Shown here: positions 11,656 to 46,105 of the stretch, piece after piece
Layout of the letters: each line of letters starts with the position of its first letter
Position numbering within the stretch: the first letter of the stretch is position 1
Assembly: GCA_037442505.1 (NCBI GenBank)
Contig: JBBIPZ010000001.1
Span: 1-64,000, forward strand
Direction: 5' to 3'
Origin: JBBIPZ01 sp037442505 [NCBI: Deltaproteobacteria bacterium]
GTDB lineage: Bacteria; CALINM01
Length of the DNA: 64,000 nucleotides
Made by a program: the position numbers and the translations under genes
The notes under the pieces: generated by a model
The model's input: the letters and a program-made list of their open reading frames with translations, nothing else
Database searches by the model: none
Told to the model about the DNA's origin: nothing

Positions 11656-11675
11656 GTATCACGAAGGGGGGATTA

Positions 11676-25056: not shown

Positions 25057-25075
25057 TTTACGTTAAATGTATCAA
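25057..25075. promoter_or_regulatory. Operator C, degenerate copy of the fad operator
   Basis: TTTACGTT followed by AAATGT and ATCAA. The left eight bases equal the complement of operator B exactly; the right half (ATGT) is displaced by one base and poorly kept. It lies downstream of the predicted -10 of the transporter operon. It is suggestive only. Confidence 0.35.
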
Positions 25076-25112
25076 ATTATAAATTAAAACATTGTATTTA
25101 GGGGGAGGCATT

Positions 25113-25919
25113 GTGGCAGAGGGTCGAATAAAAGATGAGGTGTTGTTAAGGGGAGAAAACATCACCTTAAGTTTTGGTGGTATTACTGCGCTACTCGACG
25201 TTAGCTTTGCTGTTAAAAGGGGTGAAATTTTTTCAATTATTGGTCCAAATGGTGCAGGTAAGAGTAGTCTTTACAACGTTATCAACGGCTTTTACAAACC
25301 GCAAAAGGGTAAGGTTATTTTTAAAGACAAAGAAATAACCCATCTTAAACCCTTTGAGATTGCAAAGTTAGGAATCGCGAGAAGCTTTCAGAACATTGAG
25401 TTATTTAAGCACATGACAGTTCTCGACAATTTGATGATGGGAAGGCACATCCACATCAAATACGGTCTATTAAAATCACTGTTTTATTTTGGACCTTGTC
25501 TAAAGGAAGAGGTTGAGCACAGGAAACGCGTAGAAGATGTGATAGATTTCATGGAAATTGAGCATGTGCGTAAAAAACCCGTGGGTACGTTGCCTTACGG
25601 TGTCCAGAAGAGGGTTGAGATGGCGAGGGCATTGTGTCTTGAGCCAGAGATTTTACTTTTAGACGAACCAATGGCAGGTATGAATCTGGAAGAGACGGAA
25701 GATATGGCTCGTTTTATACTTGATGTCAATAACGAATGGGGAGTAACAGTTTTGTTGATAGAACACGATATGGGTGTCGTTATGGACTTGTCCGATAGGG
25801 TAATGGTTCTGGATTTTGGTGAAAAGATTGCAGAAGGAACACCAGAAGAGGTTCAGAAAAACGAGGCTGTTGCAAAGGCTTATTTAGGCGATACAGAAGG
25901 CGCATTTTTAGGAAGATAA
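25113..25919 (+). CDS. livG: LivG-type ABC transporter ATP-binding protein
   Basis: 268 aa. Walker A GPNGAGKSSLYN near 47, Q-loop FQNIELFKHMTV near 100, the signature region LPYGVQKRVEMARAL near 162 and Walker B ILLLDEPMAGMN near 182 are present. The D loop and H-loop (LLIEHDMGVV) follow. It energises the permeases LivH/LivM. The GTG start follows GGGGGAGG (spacing short, 4 nt); an upstream in-frame ATG at 25092 would swallow that site. It is the first gene of an operon that alternates ABC components with acyl-CoA ligase-type genes, so the cargo may be an organic acid rather than a branched-chain amino acid. Confidence 0.9.
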   Translation: MAEGRIKDEVLLRGENITLSFGGITALLDVSFAVKRGEIFSIIGPNGAGKSSLYNVINGFYKPQKGKVIFKDKEITHLKPFEIAKLGIARSFQNIELFKHMTVLDNLMMGRHIHIKYGLLKSLFYFGPCLKEEVEHRKRVEDVIDFMEIEHVRKKPVGTLPYGVQKRVEMARALCLEPEILLLDEPMAGMNLEETEDMARFILDVNNEWGVTVLLIEHDMGVVMDLSDRVMVLDFGEKIAEGTPEEVQKNEAVAKAYLGDTEGAFLGR

Positions 25920-25929
25920 TGGAGGTAGT

Positions 25930-27822
25930 ATGTCAGCGGATACATTTCCAAAACTGCTTGTTGAACAGGCAAAAAAATATGGACACAAAAAGATAGCCTT
26001 AAGGGAAAAAGATTATGGAATATGGCAATCCACAACCTGGGCAGAGTATTTAGATAAAGTAAAATACTTCTCACTTGGACTTATCAGTTTAGGTTTTGAG
26101 CCCGGAGACAAAATTTCTATCATTGGTGATAACAAGCCAGAATGGGTTATAGCAGAGCTTGCGGCCCAGTCGGCAGGTGGGTTCGGTGTTGGAATTTATC
26201 AGGACTCAATTTTAAAAGAGGTTGCTTACGTCATTAACCATTCAGAATCAAAGTTTGTTATTGCGGAAGATCAGGAGCAGGTTGACAAAATACTTGATAT
26301 GCAAGAAGAATTACCTGGTGTAAAAAAGGTAATTTATTACGACCCCAAAGGACTAAGAAGTTACAAGTCAGACTTGCTTGCTTACTTTCCAGATGTGATT
26401 GAAATGGGGAAGGAATACGAAAAAAAGCATCCGGGTTTGTTTGAAAAAAATGTTGAAAATACCAAATCTGAAGATTGTGCATGGATTTGCACCACTTCTG
26501 GAACGACGGGTTTCCCCAAATTGGCTATGCTTTCGCACAGAAATCTTATCTCTATGGCGATTAATTTAGGTAAGTTTGACCCCAAGTATGATACAGATGA
26601 GTTCGTTTCATTTTTGCCATTACCATGGGTTGGAGAGCAGATGATGGCGATAGCAAGCTCACTGCTATTTGGTTTTACAGTAAACTTTCCTGAAAGCACC
26701 GAGTCAGCACAGGCGGATTTAAGAGAAATAGGTCCTAATATAATGTTCTCGCCTCCAAGGGTCTGGGAAAACATGTGTGCTTCAGTGCAGGTGAAGGTAA
26801 TGGATGCCTCATGGTTCAAAAGATTTATGTTTGACCTGTGCTTGCCTATAGGCTACAAATGGTCTGAATATAAGTTTGACAAGAAAAGACCGCCACTTTA
26901 TTTTAAAATCTTATACTATCTTGCCTATCTGGCAGTATTCAAGCCTTTAAAAGACAGGTTGGGCTTCTCCAACATCCGTTCGGCTATGACAGGCGGAGCT
27001 GCATTAGGCCCTGATACATTCAAGTTTTTTCATGCGCTTGGTATTTCATTAAAACAGATTTATGGACAGACAGAAATTAGCGGTATTTCATGTATCCACA
27101 AAGATGATGATATTAACCCCGATACTATGGGTGTTCCAATACCTGAAACTGAGGTTAAGATATCAGAAACAGGTGAAATTCTTTCAAAAAGTCCCGCAGT
27201 ATTTATGGGATACTACAAGCAGCCTGAAGAGACAGCAAAAACGGTTATTCATGGTTGGTTACATTCGGGTGATGCTGGATATCTAACTCCAGAAGGGCAT
27301 ATCGTTGTTATCGACCGTATAAAAGATGTTATGAGTTTGCGAGATGGAGTTAAGTTCTCTCCGCAGTTTATCGAAAACAAACTTAAATTTAGTCCATATA
27401 TAAAAGAGGCTGTTACCGTTGGGCATAACAGAGATTTTATTATAGCATTAATTTGTATAGACTTTGGTATTGTTGGTAACTGGGCAGAAAGAAACAAAAT
27501 AAATTACACTACCTACACAGACCTTTCGTCTAAACCGGAAGTTTACGACCTTATTCAAAAAGAGGTAGAGAAGGTTAATAAAGGTTTGCCAGAAAATGCA
27601 AAGGTTAAAAGGTTTGCACTTTTATACAAAGAACTGGATCCTGATGATGATGAGTTGACTCGTACGAGAAAAGTCAGGAGGCACTTTGTTGAAGAGAAGT
27701 ATAAAGAGATTATTGAAGGCATGTATGAAGGTAAGGATTCTATTAAAATTGAAGCGGTTATTAAATTTCAGGACGGTAAAACTTCTACAATCAGAACAGT
27801 TATAGCTGTTAGAAATGTGTAA
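25930..27822 (+). CDS. AMP-dependent acyl-CoA synthetase inside the transporter operon
   Basis: 630-aa COG1022-type ligase, full length. The AMP-binding loop TTSGTTGFPKLAM is near residue 189, YGQTEISG near 377 and IDRIKDVMSLRDG near 458. It is paralogous to the FadD at 948 but clearly divergent. It sits between livG and livH with 10-nt and 16-nt gaps and its own GGAGG sites. Placement suggests that the imported compound is trapped as a CoA thioester as it enters. Substrate unknown; fatty, branched or aromatic acids are all possible. Confidence 0.88.
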   Translation: MSADTFPKLLVEQAKKYGHKKIALREKDYGIWQSTTWAEYLDKVKYFSLGLISLGFEPGDKISIIGDNKPEWVIAELAAQSAGGFGVGIYQDSILKEVAYVINHSESKFVIAEDQEQVDKILDMQEELPGVKKVIYYDPKGLRSYKSDLLAYFPDVIEMGKEYEKKHPGLFEKNVENTKSEDCAWICTTSGTTGFPKLAMLSHRNLISMAINLGKFDPKYDTDEFVSFLPLPWVGEQMMAIASSLLFGFTVNFPESTESAQADLREIGPNIMFSPPRVWENMCASVQVKVMDASWFKRFMFDLCLPIGYKWSEYKFDKKRPPLYFKILYYLAYLAVFKPLKDRLGFSNIRSAMTGGAALGPDTFKFFHALGISLKQIYGQTEISGISCIHKDDDINPDTMGVPIPETEVKISETGEILSKSPAVFMGYYKQPEETAKTVIHGWLHSGDAGYLTPEGHIVVIDRIKDVMSLRDGVKFSPQFIENKLKFSPYIKEAVTVGHNRDFIIALICIDFGIVGNWAERNKINYTTYTDLSSKPEVYDLIQKEVEKVNKGLPENAKVKRFALLYKELDPDDDELTRTRKVRRHFVEEKYKEIIEGMYEGKDSIKIEAVIKFQDGKTSTIRTVIAVRNV

Positions 27823-27838
27823 GTAAGGAGAGAAAGCT

Positions 27839-28723
27839 ATGGAGATGATTTTACAATCTTTAATAAGTGGAATAGTAATTGGTAGTATTTATGCGCTTGT
27901 TGCGTTAGGTTTTGTTCTCATATATAAATCTACGGCTGTAATTAACTTTGCCCAGGGAGAGTTACTACTTTTTGGGGCATATATCTGTCTAACCTTAGTA
28001 ACAACATTAAAAATACCGTTCTGGATCGCATTTTTTGTTACACTCATAGCTGCAGCTTTGTTAGGATTTTTGTTAGAAAGGCTCTTTTTACGACCGATGA
28101 TTGGTGAACCAATCATATCAATCATTATGTTAACAATAGGTCTTGCCAGTTTGCTCAAAGCGGTTTTGCATCTAATATGGGGTTCTGAAACACTGGTATT
28201 TTCAGAAGTTTTTCCCACTGAACCAATGAAGTTTGGACCTGTTGCTATATCTCAGGTGTATATTTATAGTGTGTTTTTTGCTGTTGTGTGCCTTGTCTTA
28301 TTTAACATTTACTTTAGATTTTCTCGTTCAGGTATTGCGATGAGGGCGGTTGCAAATGACCAGCAGGCTGCCCAGTCGATGGGTATCAGTATTAAAAGAA
28401 TCTTTGCAAATGCTTGGGCAATAGCTGCCGTCGTGGCTAGTATAGGTGGTATATTGATAGGGAATATAAATGGTGTCAATTCAAGCTTAAGTGCTTTTGG
28501 TTTGAAGGTTTTTCCTGCCGTTATTTTGGGTGGGCTGGATAGTATTCCAGGAGCTATTGTAGGCGGCTTTACTGTTGGTATATTAGAGGCTGTAGCAGGA
28601 ATATACATAGACCCGATTTTAGAAGGTGGTTCAAAAGAGGTTGTGCCTTTTATCATTCTTGTAATTGTTCTGATGCTCAAGCCGTATGGTCTTTTTGGCA
28701 CAGAAGAAATTGAAAAGGTTTAA
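27839..28723 (+). CDS. livH: LivH-type ABC permease
   Basis: 294-aa inner-membrane permease with about eight hydrophobic helices. The N-terminal GSIYALVALGFVLIYK and INFAQGELLLFGAY segments (near 30-45) are the LivH signature. The FGLKVFPAVILGGLDSIPGAIVGGF loop region near 222-246 is the contact with the ATPases. GGAGAG lies before ATG. It pairs with the following LivM. Confidence 0.9.
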   Translation: MEMILQSLISGIVIGSIYALVALGFVLIYKSTAVINFAQGELLLFGAYICLTLVTTLKIPFWIAFFVTLIAAALLGFLLERLFLRPMIGEPIISIIMLTIGLASLLKAVLHLIWGSETLVFSEVFPTEPMKFGPVAISQVYIYSVFFAVVCLVLFNIYFRFSRSGIAMRAVANDQQAAQSMGISIKRIFANAWAIAAVVASIGGILIGNINGVNSSLSAFGLKVFPAVILGGLDSIPGAIVGGFTVGILEAVAGIYIDPILEGGSKEVVPFIILVIVLMLKPYGLFGTEEIEKV

Positions 28724-28734
28724 AGGGGGAAAAA

Positions 28735-29790
28735 ATGGCAATTAAGTGTGGAGTATTTAAAACTAATTATAAAGATGATATGGCTATCTGGCAGACGAAA
28801 GCTGTCAAGTTTTGGCTTTATCTTTTTCTTCTGGGATTGATAGTTTTCCCATTTGTTTTTAAAGATTCAAAATATTTACTGTATGTTATGAACACTGTTT
28901 TGATAGCGGTTATTGCTACGCATGGATTAAACATCTTAACAGGATTTACCGGACAGATTTCGTTAGGACATGGTGCTTTTATTGGAGTTGGGGCATACAC
29001 TTCGGGTTACCTGATGAACCAGTTTGGGTTGCCTTTCCTTTTGTGTGTAGTTGCTGCTGGATTTGTAACAGCTATTGTAGGAATGTTTTTTGGTATTCCA
29101 TCACTCAGGTTAAAAGGTCTATATCTGGCAATAGCAACACTTGCTGCACAGGTTATATTAGAGTTTGTGTTTATCAGGTGGAGGGATGTAACTGGTGGTA
29201 ATCAGGGGTTACTTGTTCAACCTGCAAGCATTGGAAAGTTTGTGTTTGATACAGATTTTAGATTTTATTTCCTTGCACTCTTTTTTACAGTATTAGCGAC
29301 AATTGTTGCAAAAAATATTGTTAGAACTGCACCCGGAAGGGCATTTATGGCTATAAGAGATAGGTATATTTCTGCAGAAATTATAGGAGTGCCGCTTTTC
29401 AGGTACAAGCTTATCTCTTTCGGTGTAAGCTCCTTTTTTGCTGGTGTAGCAGGAAGTCTCTGGGGGCATTATATTGGTATTATTACCCCAGAGCATTTTA
29501 ATGTTATGGTTTCTGTTCAGTACCTTTCAATGATTATTGTTGGTGGTCTTGGTAGTGTTGTGGGAAGTATCATGGGGGCAAGCTTTATTACATTGTTACC
29601 GGAGGTATTGAGGGCTATAAGCAACCTTTTCTCCGACAAGTATCCTTTTCTTGTAAACGCCTTTGGTGCAATAAGAGAGGGTATTTTTGGTTTGGTTATC
29701 ATTCTGTTTTTAATTTTTGAACCAGATGGTCTTGCTGCGAGGTGGAGAACTATAAAAAACTACTGGAAGTTGTGGCCATTTTCATATTAA
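28735..29790 (+). CDS. livM: LivM-type ABC permease
   Basis: 351-aa inner-membrane permease. NILTGFTGQISLGHGAF near 66 and VGGLGSVVGSIMGASF near 263 are the LivM marks. An N-terminal extension of about 25 polar residues precedes the first helix. It starts 11 nt after livH with GGGGGA. The transporter gene order continues to the binding protein after a 136-nt gap. Confidence 0.9.
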   Translation: MAIKCGVFKTNYKDDMAIWQTKAVKFWLYLFLLGLIVFPFVFKDSKYLLYVMNTVLIAVIATHGLNILTGFTGQISLGHGAFIGVGAYTSGYLMNQFGLPFLLCVVAAGFVTAIVGMFFGIPSLRLKGLYLAIATLAAQVILEFVFIRWRDVTGGNQGLLVQPASIGKFVFDTDFRFYFLALFFTVLATIVAKNIVRTAPGRAFMAIRDRYISAEIIGVPLFRYKLISFGVSSFFAGVAGSLWGHYIGIITPEHFNVMVSVQYLSMIIVGGLGSVVGSIMGASFITLLPEVLRAISNLFSDKYPFLVNAFGAIREGIFGLVIILFLIFEPDGLAARWRTIKNYWKLWPFSY

Positions 29791-29805
29791 AACAACGGTT
29801 TACTC

Positions 29806-29833
29806 TTGAAAAAAACTTAAATTGTGTTATTGT
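29806..29833 (+). promoter_or_regulatory. Weak possible promoter before livK
   Basis: TTGAAA (29806-29811), 16-nt spacer, TATTGT (29828-29833). A separate promoter or a processing site would explain the 136-nt gap and the usual need for excess binding protein. The gap also has an 8-bp inverted repeat (29843-29850 with 29883-29890) of uncertain meaning. Confidence 0.3.
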
Positions 29834-29926
29834 GTAAATACCAATGTAAAAGAAGGGGGTGGTGAGAAAAGTAAAAACTTTATTTACATTTCTTTGGGGG
29901 GGACAAACAAAAAATAAGGAGGAGTT

Positions 29927-31069
29927 ATGAAGAGATTGTTTTCAGCTTTATTTCTAGTATTGTTATTTTCTAGCTTTAGTTTTGCTGACACCATTAAAAT
30001 CGGTGGTATCTTTGACATCACAGGTGCAACAGGTGATGTTGGAGGTCCCTATGCAGAGGCAGCCAGAGACTATATTTCATACGTTAACAAACATGGTGGT
30101 GTTAACGGGAAGAAGATTGAGTTGATTAACGTTGACTATCAATACAAGATTCCACAGGCGGTATCAGCTTACAAAGAGATGGTTTCAAAGGGTGTTATTG
30201 CAATATTAGGATGGGGAACAGGTGATACAGAGGCTATGGCTCCAATGATAGCAAAAGATAAGATACCTTATATTTCTGCATCTTACTCTGAACATCTGGT
30301 TTTTGACAAAACCCCTTATAACTTTATTGGTGCTACAACATACTCAGATCAAGCAAGGCTTGCAATTAAGTGGATTAAAGATAACTGGAAAGATAAAAGC
30401 AGGGCACCAAAATTGGCTTTAATTTATAACGATACAGGTTTTGGGCGTTCCCCCATTCAGGATGCCGAAGAGTTTGCTAAGAAGGTTGGTGTAGAAGTTG
30501 TTGATAAACAGATAGTTGGATTAAAAGACCTTGATGCAACAACACAGTTGCTTAATATGCAGAAAAAAAATCCTGATTTTGCAATCATTCAGGAGACTAC
30601 AATGGCAACAAGCACAATTTTAAAAGATGCAAAAAAGTTAGGAATTAAAACCAAGTTTATTGGACTTAACTGGACATTCTCAGAGAAGCTTATTCAACAG
30701 GCTGGCAATGCAACAGAAGGCTATTATGCTGTAATGCCATTTGCATTCTGGCATGAAACAAACGTTGAAGGCATTAAACTTATGCATAAAGTTAGAAAAG
30801 AAATAAAAGGTAAAACAGATGCTCAGCCTGTTAACTATACTCAGGGCTTTTTGGCTGCATACCTTCTTGTAGAGGCATTAAAGAAGTGTGGCAAAAACCT
30901 TACAGGCGAGAACATAAAAGCAGTGTTAGAAAGCAACACATTTGACATGAAAGGTCTTTCCGCCCCAATCGCATATAAACCTAACTTAAGAAAACCGAAT
31001 CTTTCGGCAAAGATGTACACAGTTGAAAAAGGTAAGATTAAAGCAATTTCTGGATTCTTGAAATACTAA
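29927..31069 (+). CDS. livK: Periplasmic substrate-binding protein, LivK/Leu-Ile-Val family
   Basis: 380 aa. The signal peptide MKRLFSALFLVLLFSSFSFA is cleaved before DTIKIGG; there is no lipobox cysteine, so the protein is free in the periplasm, which implies an outer membrane. The mature part is a type I periplasmic binding fold: GGIFDITGATGDVGGPYAE near 26, ASYSEHLV near 118, GLNWTFSEKL near 244. The usual amino-acid contacts cannot be judged without a model. GGAGG lies 7 nt before ATG. Its neighbours suggest an organic-acid ligand. Confidence 0.9.
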   Translation: MKRLFSALFLVLLFSSFSFADTIKIGGIFDITGATGDVGGPYAEAARDYISYVNKHGGVNGKKIELINVDYQYKIPQAVSAYKEMVSKGVIAILGWGTGDTEAMAPMIAKDKIPYISASYSEHLVFDKTPYNFIGATTYSDQARLAIKWIKDNWKDKSRAPKLALIYNDTGFGRSPIQDAEEFAKKVGVEVVDKQIVGLKDLDATTQLLNMQKKNPDFAIIQETTMATSTILKDAKKLGIKTKFIGLNWTFSEKLIQQAGNATEGYYAVMPFAFWHETNVEGIKLMHKVRKEIKGKTDAQPVNYTQGFLAAYLLVEALKKCGKNLTGENIKAVLESNTFDMKGLSAPIAYKPNLRKPNLSAKMYTVEKGKIKAISGFLKY

Positions 31070-31079
31070 ATTAGACTCT

Positions 31080-31103
31080 GGAGTCGGGAGCAATCCCGAC
31101 TCC
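31080..31103 (+). other. Intercistronic GCAA-loop hairpin between livK and livF
   Basis: A perfect 10-bp GC-rich stem (31080-31089 with 31094-31103, arm GGAGTCGGGA) is closed by a GCAA (GNRA) tetraloop, 11 nt after the livK stop. It has no U-run, so it is more likely a 3' stabilising or partial-termination structure that raises livK over livF than a full terminator. Confidence 0.75.
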
Positions 31104-31134
31104 TTGGAAAAAATATTAAAAGAGGCAAAAGGTT

Positions 31135-31929
31135 ATGTTAAAACTAAACAATGTCGAAGTTATTTATGATGATGTGATTCTTGTGCTTAAAGGCATGTCT
31201 ATGACAGTAAAGGAAGGAGAGATAACTGTTCTGCTTGGTGCAAATGGTGCGGGTAAGACAACCACTCTTAAAGCAATCTCTGGTCTTTTAAAGGCAGAAG
31301 AGGGTGAAGTAACGGACGGAACCATAGAGTTTATGGGCCAAAAAATAAACAACAAGGATGCAGAAGACATCGTAAAGATGGGTATATTTCAGGTAATGGA
31401 AGGCAGACGCATTTTTAAAGATCTTACTGTCACAGAAAATTTATTGGCAGGTGCTTATACAAGAAAGGATAAGCAAAACATTAAAAGAGATATTGACCTT
31501 GTTTTTGATTACTTCCCTAAACTTAGGGACAGAAGAAATCAAATAGCAGGTTATATGAGTGGTGGAGAACAACAGATGTTGGCAATTGGAAGGGCTTTAA
31601 TGGCAAGACCAAAGCTGATGTTGCTGGATGAACCATCATTGGGTCTTGCTCCGTTATTGGTTAAAGAGATATTTGATATTGTCTCCAAGATTAATAAAGA
31701 AGAGAAAACAACTGTTTTACTGGTTGAACAGAACGCTAATTTAGCGTTATCTGTTGGTAGTTATGGTTATGTGATGGAGATGGGTAAAGTGGTGCTTGAT
31801 GGTGAGTGTGAAAAACTTAGAGAAAACGAAGATGTTAAAGAGTTTTATTTAGGGCTTTCAGAGGTTGGAAAGAAAAAGTCTTTTAAAGAAGCAAAGCACT
31901 ATAAAAGAAGAAAAAGATGGCTTTCATAA
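31135..31929 (+). CDS. livF: LivF-type ABC transporter ATP-binding protein
   Basis: 264 aa. Walker A GANGAGKTTTLKAISG near 36, signature MSGGEQQMLAIGRALMARP near 141 and Walker B LMLLDEPSLGLAP near 161 are complete. The last 20 residues form a strongly basic tail (KKKSFKEAKHYKRRKRWLS), longer than usual for LivF. It follows livK after the hairpin and is the second ATPase of the importer. Confidence 0.9.
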   Translation: MLKLNNVEVIYDDVILVLKGMSMTVKEGEITVLLGANGAGKTTTLKAISGLLKAEEGEVTDGTIEFMGQKINNKDAEDIVKMGIFQVMEGRRIFKDLTVTENLLAGAYTRKDKQNIKRDIDLVFDYFPKLRDRRNQIAGYMSGGEQQMLAIGRALMARPKLMLLDEPSLGLAPLLVKEIFDIVSKINKEEKTTVLLVEQNANLALSVGSYGYVMEMGKVVLDGECEKLRENEDVKEFYLGLSEVGKKKSFKEAKHYKRRKRWLS

Positions 31930-31954
31930 AGCCTTGACATAAAAAGGAGCGAAT

Positions 31955-33244
31955 ATGTCCAAGCGAACACAAACAGAAAGAAATTCAGGATATTACAGTG
32001 AAGTCGCAGAAAAGATGGATAGAGCTAAGAGAGCAGCTTTAAAAGAAAAAGAAGTAATTAAGATACTCAACTACGCATATGAAAAAGCCCCCGGATATAA
32101 AAAGTTTCTCGACGAAAGTGGGGTCAATCCAAAAGATATCAAAAACATAACAGATTTTTCTAAAATACCCGTGTTGAAAAAAAACAGGATGCCAGAGTTT
32201 CACCATGCAGATCCGCCATTTGGTGGTTTTCTTGCTGTGCCAGTAGAGAGTTTAAAAAGGATTTATGTTTCTCCAGGCCCAATATATGACCCGCAAGGGC
32301 GGAAGGAAGATTATTGGGGACTCAAAAAGTGTGTATATAACGTAGGTTTTCGACCTGGTGATATTGTAATGAACACTTTTTCATACCATCTTACACCAGC
32401 GGGGATATTTCTTGATGAAGCCTGTAACGGTATTGGATGTGTTACGGTGCCAACAGGTGTAGGTAATACCGAAATACAGGTTAAAACTATGGTAGAACTG
32501 AAAATTAATGGCTATATTGGTGTTCCATCATTTTTAATGGCACTTATAAATAAGTTTTCTGATTTAGGCTATGATACCAGGAAAGATCTATCTATGGAGA
32601 TAGCGCTTGTAGCAGGAGAAATTCTTTCACCATCATTAAGGAAGGGGCTGAACGATTATGGCATAATCGTAAGACAGGCTTATATTACTGCTGATTTAGG
32701 AGGTATTGCTTACGAATGTCCTTTGGAGAACGGAATGCATATCTCTGACGATATATATTTAGAAATATGTGATCCATCAACTGGTGAACCTCTACCATTT
32801 GGTGAAGTGGGCGAGGTTGTAGTTACTGATTTTAGTAACGAGTGTTATCCACTTGTTAGGTATGGCACTGGAGACCTGTCTGCCATAGACGTTTCCGAAT
32901 GTAGCTGTGGAAGGACATCATACAAGATTAAAGGCATAATGGGAAGGGCAGATGAGGTAACCAAGATAAAAGGGATGTTTGTTCATCCTCGTCAGATTGA
33001 TGAGGCGTTATCAAAACTCTCTGATATAATTGAAAAGATGAGAGTGGTTGTAACTCGTGAGGGTGTTTCAGATATAATGACTGTTGAGGTAGTACTTAAA
33101 CCAGGTATAACGCAGTCAGATGACTTGGTTGATGTAATCATTAATAAAGTTAGGGAAACTACCAAATTGCGTTCAGAAGTTAAGTTCGTAAACAACATTT
33201 CAGAGGGAAGCAAAAAAATCGAAGATTTGAGAAAATGGGAATAG
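31955..33244 (+). CDS. PaaK-like phenylacetate-CoA ligase family protein with altered nucleotide loop
   Basis: 429 aa, the length of PaaK ligases. It opens with AAEKMDRAKRAAL. C-terminal marks are RYGTGDLSAIDVSECSCGRT near 305 and the hinge KIKGIMGRADEVTKIKGMFVHP. The place where PaaK has the glycine-rich S-S/T-G-T-T-G loop reads YVSPGPIYDPQG (near 107), so ATP binding may be altered. I recall the SPGPIY variant from other transporter-linked homologues. It may activate an aromatic or small acid or play a non-canonical role. GGAG lies before ATG; it is in operon with livF. Confidence 0.75.
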   Translation: MSKRTQTERNSGYYSEVAEKMDRAKRAALKEKEVIKILNYAYEKAPGYKKFLDESGVNPKDIKNITDFSKIPVLKKNRMPEFHHADPPFGGFLAVPVESLKRIYVSPGPIYDPQGRKEDYWGLKKCVYNVGFRPGDIVMNTFSYHLTPAGIFLDEACNGIGCVTVPTGVGNTEIQVKTMVELKINGYIGVPSFLMALINKFSDLGYDTRKDLSMEIALVAGEILSPSLRKGLNDYGIIVRQAYITADLGGIAYECPLENGMHISDDIYLEICDPSTGEPLPFGEVGEVVVTDFSNECYPLVRYGTGDLSAIDVSECSCGRTSYKIKGIMGRADEVTKIKGMFVHPRQIDEALSKLSDIIEKMRVVVTREGVSDIMTVEVVLKPGITQSDDLVDVIINKVRETTKLRSEVKFVNNISEGSKKIEDLRKWE

Positions 33245-33257
33245 GAGGATACATAAT

Positions 33258-33923
33258 ATGCGAGTAAAAGATTTCATGCAAACAAAGATTATATCTGTAC
33301 CAAGCAGCACTTCTCTTTACGATGCAAGAAAGATAATGGTTGAAAACAAGATTAAAAGGCTTCCTATAGTTGATAATGGTAAGCTTGTTGGTATCACAAC
33401 GCTAAATAAAATCAGGGAGGCAACGCCCTCACAGGCAACAACATTGTCTATACACGAACTTCATTATCTAATTTCTAAAATGACAGTGAAGGATATAATG
33501 CACAGGGATGTCATAACCTGCCATCCTGATGACCCGGTTGAAGAAGTGGGGATGATTATGCATACAAGGCAGATTGGTGGACTGCCTGTTTTAAACGAGA
33601 AAGGCGACCTTGTTGGCTACATTAGCAGTAACGACCTTTTTAAAGTGTTTGTGATAATGCTTGGACTTGACAAACCTGTCTCAAGGGTAACTTTCGAGTT
33701 TGCAGTTGCAGATGTCTGTGAAAAATTAGATGCGCTTGTGAAACTTTTTGATGAACACAATCTTTGCATCAGAAGCATTGTAAGATTTGATGTTAATAGT
33801 GAAGTGTCACAGGTTGTTTTCAGGATTGAGACTGCTGATGTTAATGGACTTGTTAAAGAAGCAATCTCTAAGGGATACAAGGTGGTTTCTTATCTGACTG
33901 GTAAAAAAGAAGTAAAATTTTAA
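33258..33923 (+). CDS. CBS-pair protein with ACT-like C-terminus
   Basis: 221 aa. Two CBS motifs occupy residues 1-130 (RVKDFMQTKIISVPSS and VKDIMHRDVITCHPDD). A C-terminal ACT-like segment (VTFEFAVADVCEKLDALVKLFDE...) fills 135-215. This AcuB-like layout binds adenosyl ligands and senses energy or cofactor state. It is the last gene of the transporter operon, 13 nt after the PaaK-like gene and before a terminator, so it may regulate the importer or ligases. That role is inference. Confidence 0.75.
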   Translation: MRVKDFMQTKIISVPSSTSLYDARKIMVENKIKRLPIVDNGKLVGITTLNKIREATPSQATTLSIHELHYLISKMTVKDIMHRDVITCHPDDPVEEVGMIMHTRQIGGLPVLNEKGDLVGYISSNDLFKVFVIMLGLDKPVSRVTFEFAVADVCEKLDALVKLFDEHNLCIRSIVRFDVNSEVSQVVFRIETADVNGLVKEAISKGYKVVSYLTGKKEVKF

Positions 33924-33926
33924 CAT

Positions 33927-33948
33927 AGGGGCTTTAGCCCCTTTTTTT
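33927..33948 (+). terminator. Rho-independent terminator of the transporter operon
   Basis: AGGGGC and GCCCCT arms (33927-33932 with 33937-33942) around a TTTA loop are followed by a run of seven T. It ends the livG operon 4 nt after the CBS gene. Confidence 0.88.
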
Positions 33949-33964
33949 AATCACGTGTTCTCAG

Positions 33965-33980
33965 TTAACGTTAACGAGAA
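33965..33980. promoter_or_regulatory. Operator D before the MerR gene
   Basis: TTAACGTTAACGAGAA matches the TTKACRT-N2-AYGTMAA pattern of operators A and B in 13 of 16 positions and contains the perfect palindrome GTTAACGTTAAC (33964-33975). It lies 14 nt before the MerR start codon, suggesting autoregulation. No clear -10/-35 pair was found in the 46-nt gap after the terminator. Confidence 0.5.
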
Positions 33981-33994
33981 TTAAGGAGACCTCG

Positions 33995-34387
33995 ATGAAG
34001 GTGAATAACTCTTATAGTATAGGTGAAATAGCACATATGGTTGGATTGACACAAAGAACAATACGCTATTATGAAGAGATTGGGCTTCTTAATTCAGTCA
34101 AACGTTTGGAGGGCGGAAAGAGGATTTATACAGACGAGGATTTAAGAAGACTTAAGTTCATTAAACGTCTAAAAATTTTAGGACTTTCGCTTACTGAGAT
34201 GAAGGAGTTAGAAGATATCTATATTGTCAGTAAAAGTAACAGAGCTGCACTCTTAAAACTGATAGATATATTGAACAAAAACTTAAATGAGATAGAGAAG
34301 CGTCAGCAATCACTTAAAAAACTTAGCGAAGAAATTATCGAATATAAAAAACATGTTGAGAAAAAACTCAAAGAGTTAAAGGAGTAA
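33995..34387 (+). CDS. MerR-family regulator, LiuR-like
   Basis: 130 aa. Residues 5-72 are the MerR winged helix (YSIGEIAHMVGLTQRTIRYY, EEIGLL, GGKRIYTDEDLRRLKFI) and 75-130 an antiparallel coiled-coil dimerisation helix. There are no cysteines, so it is not a metal or redox MerR. This short, ligand-domain-free form located at the head of acyl-CoA degradation genes resembles LiuR/GnyR regulators of branched-chain and fatty acid catabolism. AGGAG lies before ATG. It ends 4 nt before the first thiolase, so it is in the operon and is the best candidate to bind operators A-D. Confidence 0.8.
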   Translation: MKVNNSYSIGEIAHMVGLTQRTIRYYEEIGLLNSVKRLEGGKRIYTDEDLRRLKFIKRLKILGLSLTEMKELEDIYIVSKSNRAALLKLIDILNKNLNEIEKRQQSLKKLSEEIIEYKKHVEKKLKELKE

Positions 34388-34391: not shown

Positions 34392-35573
34392 ATGCAGAAT
34401 GTTTATATTGTTGCAGCAGCAAGGACGGCAATTGGTGCATTTGAAGGCAGTTTGTCAGGTTTTTCTGCTCCAGAATTAGGTGGAATAGCTATTAAAGAGG
34501 CTGTAAAAAGGGCAGGGATAGATGCTAACCTTGTTGAAGAATCTATTATGGGGTGTGTTATTCAGGCTGGGTTAGGGCAAAACCCGGCAAGGCAAGCGGC
34601 TTTAAAAGCCGGGTTGCCTAATGGTGTTGAATCCCTAACTGTAAACAAAGTATGTGGTTCGGGTTTAAAAGCTGTTATGCTTGCTGCACAGGCGATTCAA
34701 AGCAATGATGCAGATGTTATAGTAGCAGGTGGTATGGAAAATATGACAAGGGCACCATATCTTATGCCTTCATTACGCAGTGGTGCTCGCATGAATAACA
34801 CAAAGATGATAGATGCAATGATCTGGGATGGTCTGTGGGAGGCTTACTATAATATGCATATGGGGGAGACTGCTGATAGGGTTTCGGAAAAATATGGAAT
34901 CTCAAGAGAAGAGCAAGATAGATATGCAGCTTATAGCTATGTAAAGGCAAAAGAAAGCATTGAAAAAGGCTATTTTAAAGATGAAATTGTTGAAGTGCTT
35001 GTCCCTCAAAGAAAAGGAGAACCAAAACCATTTGTTGTTGATGAAATATACAGAGAAACATCATTTGATGCACTGCAGGCACTGAAACCAGCATTTAATA
35101 AAAATGGCACTGTTACAGCAGGCAATGCCTCAAAAATCAGCGATGGTGCGGCTGCAGTTATAGTTATGTCTGAAAAAAAGGTGAAAGAACTTGGCATAAA
35201 ACCCATGGCAAGAATAGTAGCACAATGTGCAGCAGCATGGGACCCGATGTGGGTTTTAGTGACACCAATTTTGAGTATCCCTAAATGTTTAAGGAAGGCA
35301 GGGTTACAGGAAAAAGATATTGCATTTCACGAGATTAACGATGCTTTTGCAGCCTCATCTCTGACGGTTGTAAAAGAACTGGGTATAGATGAGAGAAAGG
35401 TGAACGTTAGAGGAAGTGCAATCTCTCTTGGACATCCAATAGGTGCATCTGGCGCAAGATTATTAACAACGCTTTTATATACAATGCGTGATAAAGGCGG
35501 AAAGTATGGTATGGCTTCTCTATGCCTTGGTGGTGGAGAGGCAGTTTCCTTAATTATAGAAAACTTAATGTAA
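34392..35573 (+). CDS. Acetyl-CoA acetyltransferase-type thiolase (first of a pair)
   Basis: 393-aa thiolase. The nucleophile is in [12 protein letters not shown] near residue 88. The usual NEAFA reads NDAFAAS near 318, the usual [10 protein letters not shown] reads [15 protein letters not shown] near 345, and the second Cys is in LCLGGGEA near 380. Catalytic residues are kept but their surroundings are altered, which hints at a different substrate from its neighbour at 35588. It cleaves or forms short 3-ketoacyl-CoA, for example acetoacetyl-CoA or 2-methylacetoacetyl-CoA. It starts 4 nt after the MerR gene. Confidence 0.88.
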
Positions 35574-35587
35574 AGGAGCTATATAAA

Positions 35588-36763
35588 ATGGAAAGAGTAG
35601 CAATTTTAGGTGCAGTAAGAACGGCTGTAGGAACATTTGGGGGTATGTTAAAGGATGTGCCACCACAACAGCTTGGAAGCATAGTAATAAAAGAGGTCTT
35701 AAATCGCGTTAATATGGATGCTCAAGACATAGAAGAGGTCATAATGGGCTGTGTTTTACAGGCGGGCTTGGGACAGAATCCTGCAAGACAGGCTTCGATT
35801 CTTGCAGGAATACCGGAAACGGTTCCTGCCTTTACTGTTAATAAAGTGTGTGGTTCAGGACTAAAAAGTGTTGCACTTGCAGCACAAAGCATTATGGTTG
35901 GCGATAGAAACGTGGTTGTGTGCGGTGGGATGGAAAATATGAGCAAATCACCTTATGTGATTCCTTCTGCGCGTTTTGGTGCGAGAATGGGGCATACAGA
36001 GGCTATCGACACGATGATAAAAGACGGGTTGGAAGATGCGTTTAATCAATATCATATGGGTATAACCGCAGAAAATCTGGCAGAAAAATTTGGTGTTACA
36101 CGAGAAGAGCAGGACAAATTTGCTTTAGCCAGTCAAAATAAGGCTGAGGCTGCAATTAAGTCAGGCAGGTTTAAAGATGAAATTGTTCCTGTCCCCGTCA
36201 AGGTTAAAAAAGAAACAATAAACTTCGAAACTGACGAGCACCCCCGTTTTGGGACAACTTTAGAGGCTTTATCTAAATTAAAACCTGCTTTCAAAGCAGA
36301 TGGAACGGTTACAGCCGGTAACGCCTCTGGAATCAACGATGGTGCAGCTGCGCTTGTATTATGTTCTGAAAGTTATGCAAAAAAAATGGGTAAAAAACCC
36401 ATCGCATATATCAAGTCTTACGGCGAAGCTGGGGTTGACCCTAAGATTATGGGCATAGGACCGGTTGGTGCTGTAAAGAACGCATTATCAAGGGCAAACC
36501 TAAAGGTTGAAGACCTGGGGCTTATAGAGGCAAACGAGGCTTTTGCTGTTCAGGCATTATGTGTGATGAAGGAACTCAATTTTAATCCAGAGATAACCAA
36601 TGTGAACGGGGGTGCAATCGCGTTGGGGCACCCCATTGGTGCTTCTGGTGCGAGAATACTAACAACGTTACTTTACGAAATGATTAAGAGAGACGTAAAG
36701 TATGGGTTAGCAACGCTTTGCATTGGCGGCGGCATGGGTATCTCCTGTATTGTAGAAAGATAA
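35588..36763 (+). CDS. Acetyl-CoA acetyltransferase-type thiolase (second of a pair)
   Basis: 391-aa thiolase with canonical motifs: [12 protein letters not shown] near 88, NEAFAVQ near 316, [17 protein letters not shown] near 343 and LCIGGGMG near 378. ATG 35588 with AGGAG 9 nt upstream is chosen over an in-frame start at 35522 that overlaps the preceding gene. Its sequence is typical of acetoacetyl-CoA thiolases of butyrate/PHB pathways. It is followed 30 nt later by a 3-hydroxybutyryl-CoA dehydrogenase. Confidence 0.9.
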
Positions 36764-36793
36764 AAAATCTTTGAGATAAAAGGAGGTTTTACT

Positions 36794-37648
36794 ATGGAAA
36801 TTAAGGTTTTTGGTGTGGTAGGTGCAGGGCAAATGGGCTCGGGTATTGCTCAGGTAGCGGCTCAGTCGGGGTTAACTGTGATTATGAGTGACATAAAAAT
36901 GGAGTTTGTGCAGAGGGGACTTTCTACAATAGAAAAAAATCTGGCTCGTTCTGTAGAAAAAGGCAAGATGACAGATGAAGAGAAAAAAAAGGTGCTTTCT
37001 CGTATTAAAGGGACTGATAATATAGAAGACCACAAGGATGCTGACTTTGTAGTAGAGGCAGCCACAGAAAATCTTACACTAAAACTTGATATTTTTAAAA
37101 AGCTTGATGAGATTACAAAAAATGATGTCATACTATCATCAAACACATCATCAATATCTATAACAAAGATAGCTGCTGCAACTAAAAGACCAGAGAAGGT
37201 TATAGGTATGCACTTTATGAATCCGGTGCCTGTTATGCAGCTTGTAGAGGTGATAAAAGGACTTTTGACCTCTAAAGAAACATTTGATACAGTCTGGGAA
37301 TTATCAAAAAAACTTGGTAAGACACCAGTTGAAGCAAACGATTTTCCAGGATTTATCTCAAATCGTATTCTATTGCCAATGATTAACGAGGCTATTTATG
37401 CCTTGTACGAAGGGGTTGGAACTGTTGAAGCCATTGATACTGTTATGAAATTGGGAATGAATCACCCGATGGGTCCTCTTGCTTTGGCAGACCTGATTGG
37501 TTTAGACACATGCCTTGCTATTATGAATGTGCTTTACGAAGGTTTAGGAGATTCAAAATACAGACCATGTCCACTGCTTAAAAAGTATGTAGATGCGGGT
37601 CTTTTAGGCAGAAAAGTTGGCAGAGGCTTTTATAATTACGAAAAGTAA
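36794..37648 (+). CDS. hbd: 3-hydroxybutyryl-CoA dehydrogenase
   Basis: 284-aa NAD(P) enzyme. The Rossmann motif [19 protein letters not shown] starts at residue 8, the catalytic His is in [15 protein letters not shown] near 139, and [12 protein letters not shown] near 180 and the closing [13 protein letters not shown] are standard. It interconverts 3-hydroxybutyryl-CoA and acetoacetyl-CoA. GGAGG lies before ATG. With the thiolase and crotonase it forms a complete short-chain set. Confidence 0.92.
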
Positions 37649-37665
37649 AAAAGGGGGAGGACATC

Positions 37666-38448
37666 ATGAATTTTAAAAATGTGATACTTGAGGTAAAAGA
37701 TAACGTTGCTTTTATAACTATTAATAGAGAAGCAAAACTAAATGCCCTAAACTCCGAAACTATTCTCGAATTAACTTGTCTTTTTGAAGGACTTTACTCA
37801 AGAGAAGATGTAAGGGTTGCTGTTTTAACTGGCGCTGGAAACAAAGCATTTGTTGCCGGTGCAGATATATCTGAAATGTCAAACATGAGTGTTCTTGAGG
37901 CAAAAGAGTTTGCAAACAGAGGCCACAATTTGATGAATAAGATTGAAAATGCGCCATTTTCAGTGATTGCAGCAGTAAATGGTTATGCCTTAGGTGGTGG
38001 AAGTGAAATTGCTTTAGCCTGCGATTTTATATATGCCTCTGATAAGGCAAAATTTGGTTTGCCTGAGGTTAGTTTAGGTGTATTTCCGGGTTTTGGTGGC
38101 ACACAGAGATTAACAAAAAAAGTTGGGCCAGCAAAGGCAAAAGAGCTTATTCTTACAGGAGAAATGATAGATGCCTGTAAAGCTTACGAATTTGGGTTAG
38201 TAAATAAGGTTGTTGAGGCTGATAAACTTATCGAAGAAGTAACTGCAGTTGCTAAGAAAATTGCTTCGAGGGCGCCTTTTGCTGTGAAATTAGCAAAAGA
38301 ACTTGTAGATTTAGCAGCAAGTACTGATTTAAAGAGGGGACTAAAGGTTGAAGCGGATTATTTTTCACTATGCTTCGCAACGGAGGATCAGAAGGCTGGA
38401 ATGAAGGCGTTTCTTGAAAAAACAAAGGTTGAATTTAAAGGCAGATAA
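37666..38448 (+). CDS. crt: Enoyl-CoA hydratase (crotonase)
   Basis: 260 aa. Both catalytic glutamates are in place, in NGYALGGGSEIALACD near 107 and FGLPEVSLGVFPGFGGTQRL near 128, so it should hydrate crotonyl-CoA or related short enoyl-CoA. GGGGAGG lies upstream of ATG. It is between hbd and two acyl-CoA dehydrogenases, as in butyryl-CoA modules. Confidence 0.9.
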   Translation: MNFKNVILEVKDNVAFITINREAKLNALNSETILELTCLFEGLYSREDVRVAVLTGAGNKAFVAGADISEMSNMSVLEAKEFANRGHNLMNKIENAPFSVIAAVNGYALGGGSEIALACDFIYASDKAKFGLPEVSLGVFPGFGGTQRLTKKVGPAKAKELILTGEMIDACKAYEFGLVNKVVEADKLIEEVTAVAKKIASRAPFAVKLAKELVDLAASTDLKRGLKVEADYFSLCFATEDQKAGMKAFLEKTKVEFKGR

Positions 38449-38477
38449 AACGTTAATTATTTACTGAAGGAGGATTT

Positions 38478-39620
38478 ATGGATTTTTTATTGAATGAAGA
38501 AGAAAAGATGATGCAGGATATGGTGCGAAATTTTGCAGCAAAGGAAGTGGCACCTCTGGCAGCAAAGATGGATGAGACAGGTGAGTTTCCTGTTGAATTG
38601 GTGAAGAAGATGGGAGAGTTAGGGCTTATGGGCGTAGATGTTCCTGAGGAGTATGGCGGGGCAGGAATGAATTATATGTGTTACGCCATTGCGATAGAAG
38701 AACTTGCAAGGTATTGTGGTAACACTTCAGTTATAATGTCTGTTAACAACTCACTTGTTTGTTCTCCTCTACAGAAGTTTGCAACGGAAGAACAAAAAAA
38801 GAAGTATCTTGTTCCGCTTGCTTCCGGGAAAAAACTGGGCTGTTTTGGCTTGACTGAGCCAAATGCCGGTTCTGACGCAGGAAGTATCCAGACAACAGCG
38901 GTAAAAGATGGAGATTATTATGTTTTGAATGGTAACAAAATCTTTATAACTAATGCCACTCATGCAGACACTGCCCTTATCTTTGCATCAACGGATAGGT
39001 CATTAAAACACAAGGGTATCACTTGTTTTATTGTAGAAAAAGGCATGAAAGGCTTTGAAGTAGGTAAAGTTGAGCACAAATTGGGTATAAATGCATCTGG
39101 TACTGCAGAGCTGGTTTTGCAGGATGTGAGAGTGCCAGCAGAAAATAGACTTGGCAGTGAGGGCGAGGGCTTTAAAGTTGCCATGTACACTCTTGATTGT
39201 GGCAGAATTGGTATCGCTGCTCAGGCGCTTGGAATAGCAAGAGGTGCGTTGGAAGAGTCCATAAAGTTTGCAAAGGAGAGGGTGCAGTTTGGCAAGCCAA
39301 TTGCTGAGTTTCAGGCAATACAGTGGATGATTGCAGATATGGCTACAGAGATCGATGCAGCAAGGCTTCTTGTAAGAAGAGCCGCATTTTTGAAAGATAG
39401 TGGACATAAATTTTCGAAAGAATCCTCTATGGCAAAACTTTTTGCGGCAGAAACCGCAATGAGAGCAACAACAAAGGCGATTCAGATTCACGGCGGATAT
39501 GGTTACAGTAAGGAGTATCCCGTCGAACGTTACTTTAGAGATGCGAAAATTACCGAAATTTACGAAGGCACATCAGAGATACAAAGACTTGTTATCGCTT
39601 CAAATATACTTAAAGGGTAG
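38478..39620 (+). CDS. Short-chain acyl-CoA dehydrogenase (butyryl-CoA type)
   Basis: 380-aa FAD enzyme. FGLTEPNAGSDAGSIQTTA is near 130 and the catalytic base is in EIYEGTSEIQRLV near residue 367. The HGGYGYSKEYPVERYFRDAKI segment is typical of butyryl/short-chain enzymes. AAGGAGG lies 5 nt before ATG. It precedes a second paralogue by 5 nt; the pair may differ in straight versus branched substrate. Electron transfer flavoprotein genes are not in the window. Confidence 0.88.
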   Translation: MDFLLNEEEKMMQDMVRNFAAKEVAPLAAKMDETGEFPVELVKKMGELGLMGVDVPEEYGGAGMNYMCYAIAIEELARYCGNTSVIMSVNNSLVCSPLQKFATEEQKKKYLVPLASGKKLGCFGLTEPNAGSDAGSIQTTAVKDGDYYVLNGNKIFITNATHADTALIFASTDRSLKHKGITCFIVEKGMKGFEVGKVEHKLGINASGTAELVLQDVRVPAENRLGSEGEGFKVAMYTLDCGRIGIAAQALGIARGALEESIKFAKERVQFGKPIAEFQAIQWMIADMATEIDAARLLVRRAAFLKDSGHKFSKESSMAKLFAAETAMRATTKAIQIHGGYGYSKEYPVERYFRDAKITEIYEGTSEIQRLVIASNILKG

Positions 39621-39625
39621 GAAAG

Positions 39626-40765
39626 ATGAATCTAACTTTAACTGAAGAACAAAAGTTGATTCGAGACACTGCAAAAAGTTTTGCAGAAAAAGAGATTGCA
39701 CCCGTGATAAATGAATATGAAGAAAACCACAAATTTCCTGCTCACATTGTCAAAAAGCTTGCAGAACTTGGTTTTATGGGAATGAATATAAAAGAAGAGT
39801 ATGGTGGACAGGAGGCTGGTTCTGTCGCATTGTCGCTTTCAATAACAGAGGTCGCCAAAGCGAGTGCTTCTGTTGCTGTTACAATGTCTGTAACAAACAT
39901 GGTTGCAGAGGTGATTCAGGAATTTGGGACAGAAGAAGCGAAGAAAAGGTTTTTACCTCCACTATGTAGCGGAGAATATCTTGCAGGAGGTTTTTGTTTA
40001 ACTGAGCCTGACGCAGGGTCTGACGCTTCATCAATCAAAACAAGGGCAGATAAAGTAGATGGTGGCTACCTGCTGAACGGCAACAAGATCTTTATCACAA
40101 GTGGTGAAGTTGCTGGTTGTTTTGTTGTGTGGGCTGTTACCGACAAGAAGGCTGGCAAGAAAGGTATTTCTGCGTTTGTTGTTCCTGCAGATACAAAAGG
40201 CTTGATAGTGGGGAAGAAAGAAGAAAAAATGGGTCAATGTGCATCCCCAACCAACGAAATTGCGTTTTCAGACTGTTTTGTATCCTACGAACAGCTGCTT
40301 GGGACAGAAGGGGATGGTTATAAAATAGCGCTTATGGAGCTTGCCGGAGGTAGAATAGGTATTGCCTCACTTTCTGTTGGAGTCGGTTATGCAGCGATGG
40401 ACTGCGCAGTGAAGTTTGCAAAAGAGAGGGTGCAGTTTGGCAAACCAATAACCGAATTTCAGGCGATCCAATGGATGGTTGCTGATTCTTATACTCAGCT
40501 TGATGCGGCAAGGTTACTGACACTTAGAGCCGCGTATTTAAAGGAAAAAAAACTTCCTTTTACTAAAGAAGGCTCGATGGCGAAACTGTATGCATCAGAA
40601 GCGGCAAACAGGGCGTGTTTAAAGGCTGTCCAGATTATGGGTGGATATGGCTACAGCAAAGAGTATTCAGTAGAAAGGTATTTGAGAGACATTAAGGTAA
40701 CTACAATTTATGAAGGTACATCAGAAGTGCAAAGAATGGTTATTGCGAGGGAAGTGATTAAGTGA
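39626..40765 (+). CDS. Acyl-CoA dehydrogenase (second paralogue)
   Basis: 379 aa with FCLTEPDAGSDASSIKT near 126 and the catalytic Glu in TIYEGTSEVQRMV near 366. It differs from its neighbour in the active-site lid (GQCASPTNEIAF versus GINASGTAELVL), so substrate preference probably differs. The stop overlaps the cobalamin adenosyltransferase start by 4 nt (GTGA), which ties fatty-acyl oxidation and cofactor supply in one transcript. Confidence 0.87.
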   Translation: MNLTLTEEQKLIRDTAKSFAEKEIAPVINEYEENHKFPAHIVKKLAELGFMGMNIKEEYGGQEAGSVALSLSITEVAKASASVAVTMSVTNMVAEVIQEFGTEEAKKRFLPPLCSGEYLAGGFCLTEPDAGSDASSIKTRADKVDGGYLLNGNKIFITSGEVAGCFVVWAVTDKKAGKKGISAFVVPADTKGLIVGKKEEKMGQCASPTNEIAFSDCFVSYEQLLGTEGDGYKIALMELAGGRIGIASLSVGVGYAAMDCAVKFAKERVQFGKPITEFQAIQWMVADSYTQLDAARLLTLRAAYLKEKKLPFTKEGSMAKLYASEAANRACLKAVQIMGGYGYSKEYSVERYLRDIKVTTIYEGTSEVQRMVIAREVIK

Positions 40766-41283
40766 TACAGGTGTATACTGGAGATGGCAAGGGGAAGACA
40801 ACTGCTGCACTGGGATTAGCGTTGAGGGCTGCCGGGCATTCGGTTAAGAGCGTAGTGATACAGTTTATGAAGAGCCACAGTTGCGGTTATGGCGAGCACG
40901 AGTCGATAAGGATGCTTTATCCTTATGTTGAAATATATGCGTTTGGCAGAGATTGTTTTGTAAGCAAGGAAAAGCCCAATCAAATTGACAGAGAGTATGC
41001 AATAGAGGCATTTGAATTTTTTAAAAAATGCCTAAAATCAGGCAACTACAGGATATACATTCTTGATGAAATCTGCGTTGCGCTCGATTATGGTCTCATA
41101 CCTCTGGTTGAGCTTATTAAAATTTTACGAAATATTGATAAAGATGAAATTGAAGTAGTATTAACAGGACGGTATGCACCACAAGAGTTGTTAGAAATAG
41201 CCGATTTAGTGACCGAGTTTAAAGAGTTAAAGCACTATTATGCCAGGGAAGGCATAATGGGCAGAAAAGGGATAGATTATTGA
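40762..41283 (+). CDS. Cob(I)yrinic acid a,c-diamide adenosyltransferase (CobO/BtuR family)
   Basis: 173-aa ATP:corrinoid adenosyltransferase, with P-loop VYTGDGKGKTTAALGLALRA at residues 4-23, ILDEICVALDYGLI near 94 and GRYAPQEL near 134. It makes adenosylcobalamin, the cofactor of the mutase encoded next. GTG start overlapping the upstream stop. Position inside the acyl-CoA operon, not with corrin synthesis genes, points to local cofactor loading or repair of the mutase. No cobalamin riboswitch is possible upstream because the genes overlap. Confidence 0.88.
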   Translation: MIQVYTGDGKGKTTAALGLALRAAGHSVKSVVIQFMKSHSCGYGEHESIRMLYPYVEIYAFGRDCFVSKEKPNQIDREYAIEAFEFFKKCLKSGNYRIYILDEICVALDYGLIPLVELIKILRNIDKDEIEVVLTGRYAPQELLEIADLVTEFKELKHYYAREGIMGRKGIDY

Positions 41284-41309
41284 ATTAAGCTTTTTTTAAG
41301 GAGTTTTGT

Positions 41310-42974: not shown

Positions 42975-43021
42975 ATTGATAGAATTCAACAAATAATACC
43001 TGTAATGGGGGTTAGTTAAAT

Positions 43022-43420: not shown

Positions 43421-43453
43421 AAAAGATAAATAGAAAAAGGGGGGAGTAGGGGT

Positions 43454-45135: not shown

Positions 45136-45145
45136 AGGAAAGATT

Positions 45146-46093: not shown

Positions 46094-46105
46094 CAGGGGG
46101 GAGAA

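What the first reader, a model, noticed from the sequence alone, without database searches (positions are those of the whole stretch)
25057..33980. Possible LiuR-like MerR regulon linking four loci
The MerR gene at 33995 heads the short-chain acyl-CoA operon and has its own copy of the operator (33965-33980, 13 of 16 pattern matches). A degenerate copy lies in the leader of the transporter operon (25057-25075). With sites A and B, long-chain oxidation, acid import and short/branched-chain oxidation would form one regulon. MerR-type LiuR regulators of acyl-CoA catabolism are known in proteobacteria. Here the sites cover -35 boxes, which fits repression and not classical MerR spacer remodelling.
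Basis: partly seen in the sequence, partly recalled or inferred. Interest (0 to 1): 0.65.

Follow-up and report, generated by a model that had tools for sequence, protein, structure and literature searches.

The report
MerR switch for acid uptake, breakdown
A small MerR-family regulator appears to control its own short/branched-chain acyl-CoA breakdown operon and the neighbouring acid-import operon through one conserved DNA palindrome, while the long-chain fatty-acid operon thought to share that switch carries a different palindrome that in related bacteria goes with a sister regulator.

Summary
Partly right. A matrix learned from MerR promoters of other genomes (window and its nearest relative left out) gives the palindrome CASTTWACGTWAASTG. 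It ranks the finding's two sites first (25054-25069, 20.7 bits) and second (33962-33977, 16.8 bits) of 63,985 window positions. In the nearest held genome, the only two exact pattern matches lie at the same two promoters. A two-operon regulon, acid import plus short/branched-chain beta-oxidation, is well supported.

The four-locus claim is not supported. Sites A (718) and B (891), between divergent fadL and fadD, rank 74 and 124 with that matrix, but 2 and 1 with one from long-chain-operon promoters of other genomes, which carry a sister MerR subgroup. One genome has both MerRs, each with its own operator class. The nearest homologous fadL/fadD region keeps both sites.

The window's genome is not held, so a second MerR there is inferred and one MerR reading all four sites is not excluded. 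Binding, repression and ligand are inferred.

The parts
33995..34387 (+). MerR-family regulator, 130 aa, no cysteine
   Evidence: PF13411/PF00376/PF09278; sequence; 76% to L001
33962..33977 (+).
   Evidence: Rank 2 of 63,985 with an independent matrix; same place in L001
25054..25069 (+). Operator O2 (CAGTTTACGTTAAATG) in the leader of the transporter operon
   Evidence: Rank 1 of 63,985; same place in L001
25007..25035 (+). Sigma-70-like promoter TTGACA-17-TAACAT upstream of O2
   Evidence: consensus match only
33927..33942 (+). Terminator-like hairpin between transporter operon and O1
   Evidence: consensus match only
25092..33923 (+). Transporter operon: LivG-type ATPase, AMP-forming acyl-CoA synthetase, two permeases, binding protein, LivF-type ATPase, second AMP-binding enzyme (PaaK-like, my label), CBS protein
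   Evidence: Pfam; ORFs; a GTG at about 25113 may be the true first start (read)
34392..46897 (+). MerR operon: two thiolases, 3-hydroxyacyl-CoA dehydrogenase, enoyl-CoA hydratases, three acyl-CoA dehydrogenases, CobO, methylmalonyl-CoA mutase parts, DUF6125, MeaB
   Evidence: one operon inferred from spacing and strand
718..733 (.). Site A (TTGACGTTGATGTCAA), LiuR-type palindrome, over the -35 box of fadL
891..906 (.). Site B (TTGACATGAACGTAAA), LiuR-type palindrome, over the -35 box of fadD
   Evidence: orthologous sites
1..582 (-). fadL-type outer-membrane transporter, cut by the window edge
   Evidence: PF03349, E 3.3e-46
930..12425 (+). Long-chain fatty-acid oxidation operon (acyl-CoA ligase, FadN-like, thiolase, FadE-like, MBL, OYE-type, thioesterase, hydratase); FadN is my label

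Best explanation
MerR 33995 is an autoregulated repressor of a two-operon regulon: its own operon (short/branched-chain acyl-CoA beta-oxidation and the methylmalonyl-CoA mutase route) and the upstream importer/acyl-CoA-ligase operon. A dimer binds the palindrome CAGTT-N6-AASTG at 33962 and 25054, at or just past the start of transcription, and blocks RNA polymerase; an acyl-CoA of the pathway releases it. Sites A and B at fadL/fadD form a sister regulon with another palindrome, TTGAC-N6-GTCAA over the -35 box, most likely read by a second MerR encoded outside the window. Shown here: the motif, its conservation and places, and the split of operator classes between MerR subgroups. Inferred: binding, repression, ligand, and the second MerR in this organism. 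I put the two-operon part alone at about 0.85.
For: Palindrome found de novo in 18 MerR promoters, log-likelihood ratio 158.6 against 22-28 in 6 letter-shuffled sets; the finding's two sites rank 1 and 2 in the window; same two promoters in the nearest genome held; 16 of 20 distinct exact matches in 12 genomes precede merR (8), livG (3), the mutase cluster (2) or CoA-ligase genes (3); 8 of 11 livG regions carry it; 15 of 30 MerR promoters from a later draw carry it, 13 of 28 without two training genomes. For the split: A and B rank 74 and 124 with this matrix, 2 and 1 with a matrix from 11 long-chain-operon promoters; 10 of 10 loci with DNA upstream of fadD carry that site; operator classes follow the MerR subgroup; G298 has both; G146, with the FadN nearest to the window's (74%), keeps both sites between divergent fadL and fadD, and one of its three subgroup-2-like MerRs lies just past that operon.
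Against: 31 of 47 non-training, non-duplicate subgroup-1 promoters show neither operator, and 3 of 11 livG regions lack it. 24 of 25 genomes have a single MerR of this kind. 33965 also fits the LiuR frame. With a matrix from subgroup-2 MerR promoters A and B rank 3 and 2 but are not beyond chance for 64 kb (131 and 114 of 200 random sequences reach them). In G146 the livG operon carries a LiuR-type site, so importer operons are not tied to one class. Recognition helices hardly differ between subgroups. Subgroup 1 is not a clade in the tree; subgroup 2 is nested in it. No promoter was called at 33962.
Confidence: 0.6

Rival explanations
1. One MerR, one regulon: MerR 33995 reads both palindromes and joins fadL, fadD, the importer operon and its own operon.
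For: 24 of 25 genomes have a single MerR of this kind; recognition helices are nearly the same in both subgroups; the MerR's own site scores in both frames; no second MerR was found among the window proteins scanned.
Against: 25054 and A/B each fit only one class; operator class follows MerR subgroup; G298 and G146 show that MerRs of this kind coexist in a genome; 8 fadN regions of genomes with the window's MerR subgroup show no site of either class at the operon, though several contigs are short.
Confidence: 0.25
2. The two-operon regulon is right, but A and B are read by a regulator of another family (for example TetR type).
For: Fatty-acid degradation is often under TetR or GntR proteins (PMC5343134, passages seen); no owner of A/B is in the window.
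Against: Genomes with the orthologous fadD operon and site carry a subgroup-2 MerR whose own promoter has the same class of palindrome, and it lies near the operon in several.
Confidence: 0.1
3. The sites at 25057 and 33965 are chance resemblances.
Against: Ranks 1 and 2 with an independent matrix; same places in the nearest genome held.
Confidence: 0.03

Closest known systems
LiuR, MerR-family repressor of branched-chain amino acid utilisation in Proteobacteria (PMC3223726, PMC5343134, PMC7238569: passages seen)
   Same: MerR family; linked to acyl-CoA degradation genes; palindromic operator before its own gene.
   Different: This subgroup's operator is CAGTT-N6-AASTG, not the TTKACGT-N2-ACGTMAA form recalled for LiuR; its operons hold an importer, short-chain beta-oxidation and methylmalonyl-CoA mutase. 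The primary LiuR paper is not held and no named LiuR protein was compared.
Subgroup-2 MerR beside long-chain operons in Desulfobulbales/Desulfuromonadales-type genomes (L039-L056, G094)
   Same: 36-44% identical, nearly the same recognition helix, single in the genomes searched.
   Different: Operator TTGAC-N6-GTCAA-like, at fadD; wing residues differ.
Classical MerR-family activators (CueR, ZntR, MerR, SoxR)
   Same: Same DNA-binding domain; NCBIfam matches to ZntR, MerR, CueR models below their cut-offs.
   Different: No cysteine; operator not seen inside a 19-20 base promoter spacer.

Membership tests
MerR family | N-terminal MerR winged helix-turn-helix plus dimer helix | tested here: met
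   PF13411, PF00376, PF09278 above cut-off
LiuR | Operator of the TTKACGT-N2-ACGTMAA type (letters recalled) | tested here: inconclusive
   33965 fits partly (rank 3), 25057 does not (rank 26); relatives' promoters give another palindrome
LiuR | Controls liu/ivd/bkd branched-chain amino acid genes | tested here: inconclusive
   Acyl-CoA dehydrogenases, hydratases and thiolases are present; no carboxylase or keto-acid dehydrogenase seen among window proteins scanned; genome not held
LiuR | Orthology to named LiuR proteins | not tested
   No named LiuR sequence was in hand; the tree has none
Classical MerR activator | Operator within a long -35/-10 spacer | tested here: not met
   O2 lies past the -10 match; no promoter called at O1
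Classical MerR activator | Metal- or redox-binding cysteines | tested here: not met
   No cysteine in the sequence
Window subgroup (subgroup 1) | CASTTWACGTWAASTG before merR and livG | tested here: met
   Ranks 1 and 2
Window subgroup (subgroup 1) | Forms a clade apart from subgroup 2 | tested here: not met
   Subgroup 2 is nested among subgroup-1 rows; few columns, many forks unresolved

The most novel reading that the evidence does not exclude
One MerR lineage has given rise to two kinds of repressor with nearly the same recognition helix but different palindromes and different promoter geometry (past the -10 box versus over the -35 box). Where both occur in one cell they run separate regulons: short/branched-chain acids with import on one, long-chain fatty acids on the other. 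The window organism combines the first kind with operators of the second kind kept at fadL/fadD.
Probability: 0.45. Interest if true: 0.55.

Novelty: new variant of a known kind. Interest (0 to 1): 0.42.

Why it matters
It gives an operator and predicted targets to a MerR subgroup spread over many lineages (named records), and a natural pair of related repressors for asking how MerR proteins change DNA specificity while the recognition helix stays the same. It also warns against merging two regulons on the strength of a loose pattern.

Tried and rejected
It is also too strict for the LiuR class: it misses the G094 site seen.

All four sites as one motif: dropped after separate matrices. I first took the single MerR per genome as support for one regulon; G298 and G146 showed coexistence.

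A fadN operon with either operator in genomes of the window's MerR subgroup: not found in 8 regions (best intergenic score 11.2 bits, away from fadN; two LiuR-type scores of 14.8 and 15.8 lie inside ORFs; three contigs are 6-9 kb and may lack the promoter). A second genome like the window among 98 relatives of G001: none (MerR in 4, FadN in 17, best FadN 59%). The recognition helix as cause of the operator change: no consistent difference. Six proteobacterial MerRs showed no ACGT palindrome by eye and were not used as LiuR.

Literature: the primary LiuR paper is not held. Searches listed no paper on this operator by title or abstract start; the library holds open-licence papers only. No structure was predicted.
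Full report
Observation.

Independent motif. One scan of a genome collection gave 80 loci that encode relatives of the MerR. The closest, L001, is 76% identical and has the same gene order as far as its contig reaches. From promoters of 18 other loci (L001, the window and near-copies of L029 left out, as were loci without a thiolase or importer context) a palindromic search gave CASTTWACGTWAASTG, log-likelihood ratio 158.6 against 22.2-28.0 for 6 letter-shuffled sets; L027, L031 and L034 had no strong site. Over the window this matrix puts 25054 first (20.7 bits) and 33962 second (16.8); the third (11.6) is inside a gene. Of 200 order-1 random sequences of the same length, 1 and 8 hold a site as good.

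Conservation. The window's DnaK is 88-89% identical to those of G001 (the genome of L001) and G014. In G001 the exact pattern AGTTNACGTNAANNG occurs twice, before merR and before livG. Over 12 genomes it gave 21 rows, 20 distinct places, against 15 for the reversed control, so the number is not the argument; the places are: 8 before merR, 3 before livG, 2 in the mutase cluster, 3 before CoA-ligase genes (all in G009), and 4 others, of which three are inside ORFs and one precedes a gene whose family was not tested. Of 11 livG regions 8 carry the site, in five of them shared with a divergent merR, and 3 do not. In a later draw of 198 genomes of G009's phylum the MerR was found in 36. Of 30 loci fetched there, 15 carry the site at 14 bits or more; two of the 15 come from training genomes, leaving 13 of 28.

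The two operons. Transporter operon: branched-chain-type ABC importer with binding protein, an AMP-forming acyl-CoA synthetase and a second AMP-binding enzyme. MerR operon: thiolases, 3-hydroxyacyl-CoA dehydrogenase, enoyl hydratases, three acyl-CoA dehydrogenases, CobO, methylmalonyl-CoA mutase parts and MeaB. Uptake, activation and oxidation of short or branched acids ending in propionyl-CoA is inferred from this gene set.

Sites A and B. They lie between divergent fadL (PF03349) and fadD and cover TTGACA boxes. With the matrix above they score 2.2 and 0.3 bits (ranks 74 and 124). With a matrix from 11 fadD or fadN promoter sites of other genomes they rank 2 and 1 (10 and 1 of 150 random sequences reach them), 33965 is third (73 of 150) and 25051 is 26th. 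With a matrix from subgroup-2 MerR promoters alone they rank 3 and 2, yet 131 and 114 of 200 random sequences reach them, so that matrix by itself is weak evidence. Twelve genomes with subgroup-2 MerRs hold FadN at 62-67% identity to the window's, and G094 at 59%; each of the 13 has one MerR of this kind. Ten of 10 loci with DNA upstream of fadD carry the site, 8 with no and 2 with one mismatch to TTNACNTNNANGTNAA; of two further loci one begins inside fadD and one shows neither fadD nor a site. In the tree these MerRs form a clade with G094 (support 100/99), nested among the window's kind, which is therefore not a clade; the window's own place is not resolved beyond L001.

Two classes, two MerRs. 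Of 94 loci given, 90 could be scored. Outside training and marked duplicates (69 left; G008's MerR is counted twice as L026 and L261) the window's kind shows 16 CASTT-type, 0 LiuR-type and 31 neither; the other kind 17 LiuR-type, 1 called the other way (L053, 14.3 against 13.9 bits) and 4 neither. The label is a 46% identity cut, and the rows are related, so the Fisher value of 1.5e-8 is not a true probability. In G298 the MerR at 57% identity heads a thiolase-to-mutase operon with CAGCTAACGTAAGGTG; the MerR at 39% lies beside fadN-fadA-fadE, with TTGACATTAACGTTAA just before fadE and two overlapping sites at its own gene; no strong site was seen before fadN. G146 has the FadN nearest to the window's (74%), the same divergent fadL/fadD layout with TTAACGCGCATGTCAA and TTGACATGAATGTCAA, and three MerRs, all nearer to subgroup 2, one just past the 3' end of this operon. 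Its livG operon carries a LiuR-type site, and two of its three MerR promoters show neither class. The window has a secretion-ATPase ORF and a DUF4388 ORF at the 3' end of its operon.

Mechanism. At 10 of 19 CASTT-type sites a sigma-70-like promoter was called: in 8 the operator starts 3-19 bases past the -10 hexamer as best call (window 25054: 19), in L005 two equal calls disagree (-23 and 7), and in L003 the call overlaps the operator; at 9, including window 33962, none was called. At B, L171, L173, L174 and L176 the second-class operator forms the -35 box; at 9 other such sites no promoter or another one was called. Both layouts fit blocking of the promoter better than spacer remodelling. 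The protein has no cysteine; an acyl-CoA ligand is inferred from the regulated genes and from LiuR.

Limits. No genome is held for the window, so the second MerR is an inference. Recognition helices are almost the same and wings differ. A correlation study of MerR proteins places most specificity pairs in the recognition helix and some in the first wing (PMC5045206, passages seen), so what changes the operator is open. LiuR as a MerR-family regulator of branched-chain amino acid use is taken from PMC3223726, PMC5343134 and PMC7238569 (passages seen); its consensus letters are recalled.

Noticed in passing
window 16913-21015: Cluster with arginase-family, pyruvoyl-dependent arginine decarboxylase, saccharopine-dehydrogenase and Orn/DAP/Arg-decarboxylase domains, possibly polyamine metabolism.
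   Followed up: no
window 33927-33977: A terminator-like hairpin ends 19 bases before operator O1 and no sigma-70-like promoter was called for merR; how merR is transcribed is unclear.
   Followed up: partly
window 930-12425: The nearest genome held, G001, has no FadN match at E 1e-50 (completeness unknown), while the window has the whole operon; gain by transfer or loss in G001 are both possible.
   Followed up: partly
L058 6466-6487: An Archaeoglobus MerR gene is preceded by TTAACGTTTACGTAAACGTTAA, overlapping LiuR-type palindromes 6 bases apart.
   Followed up: no
L006, L013, L014, L016, L017, L022-L024, L028: Spirochaete and Smithella-type MerRs close to the window's (50-56%) show neither operator at their gene; in several of them merR lies just after CoA-ligase-like genes.
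   Followed up: no
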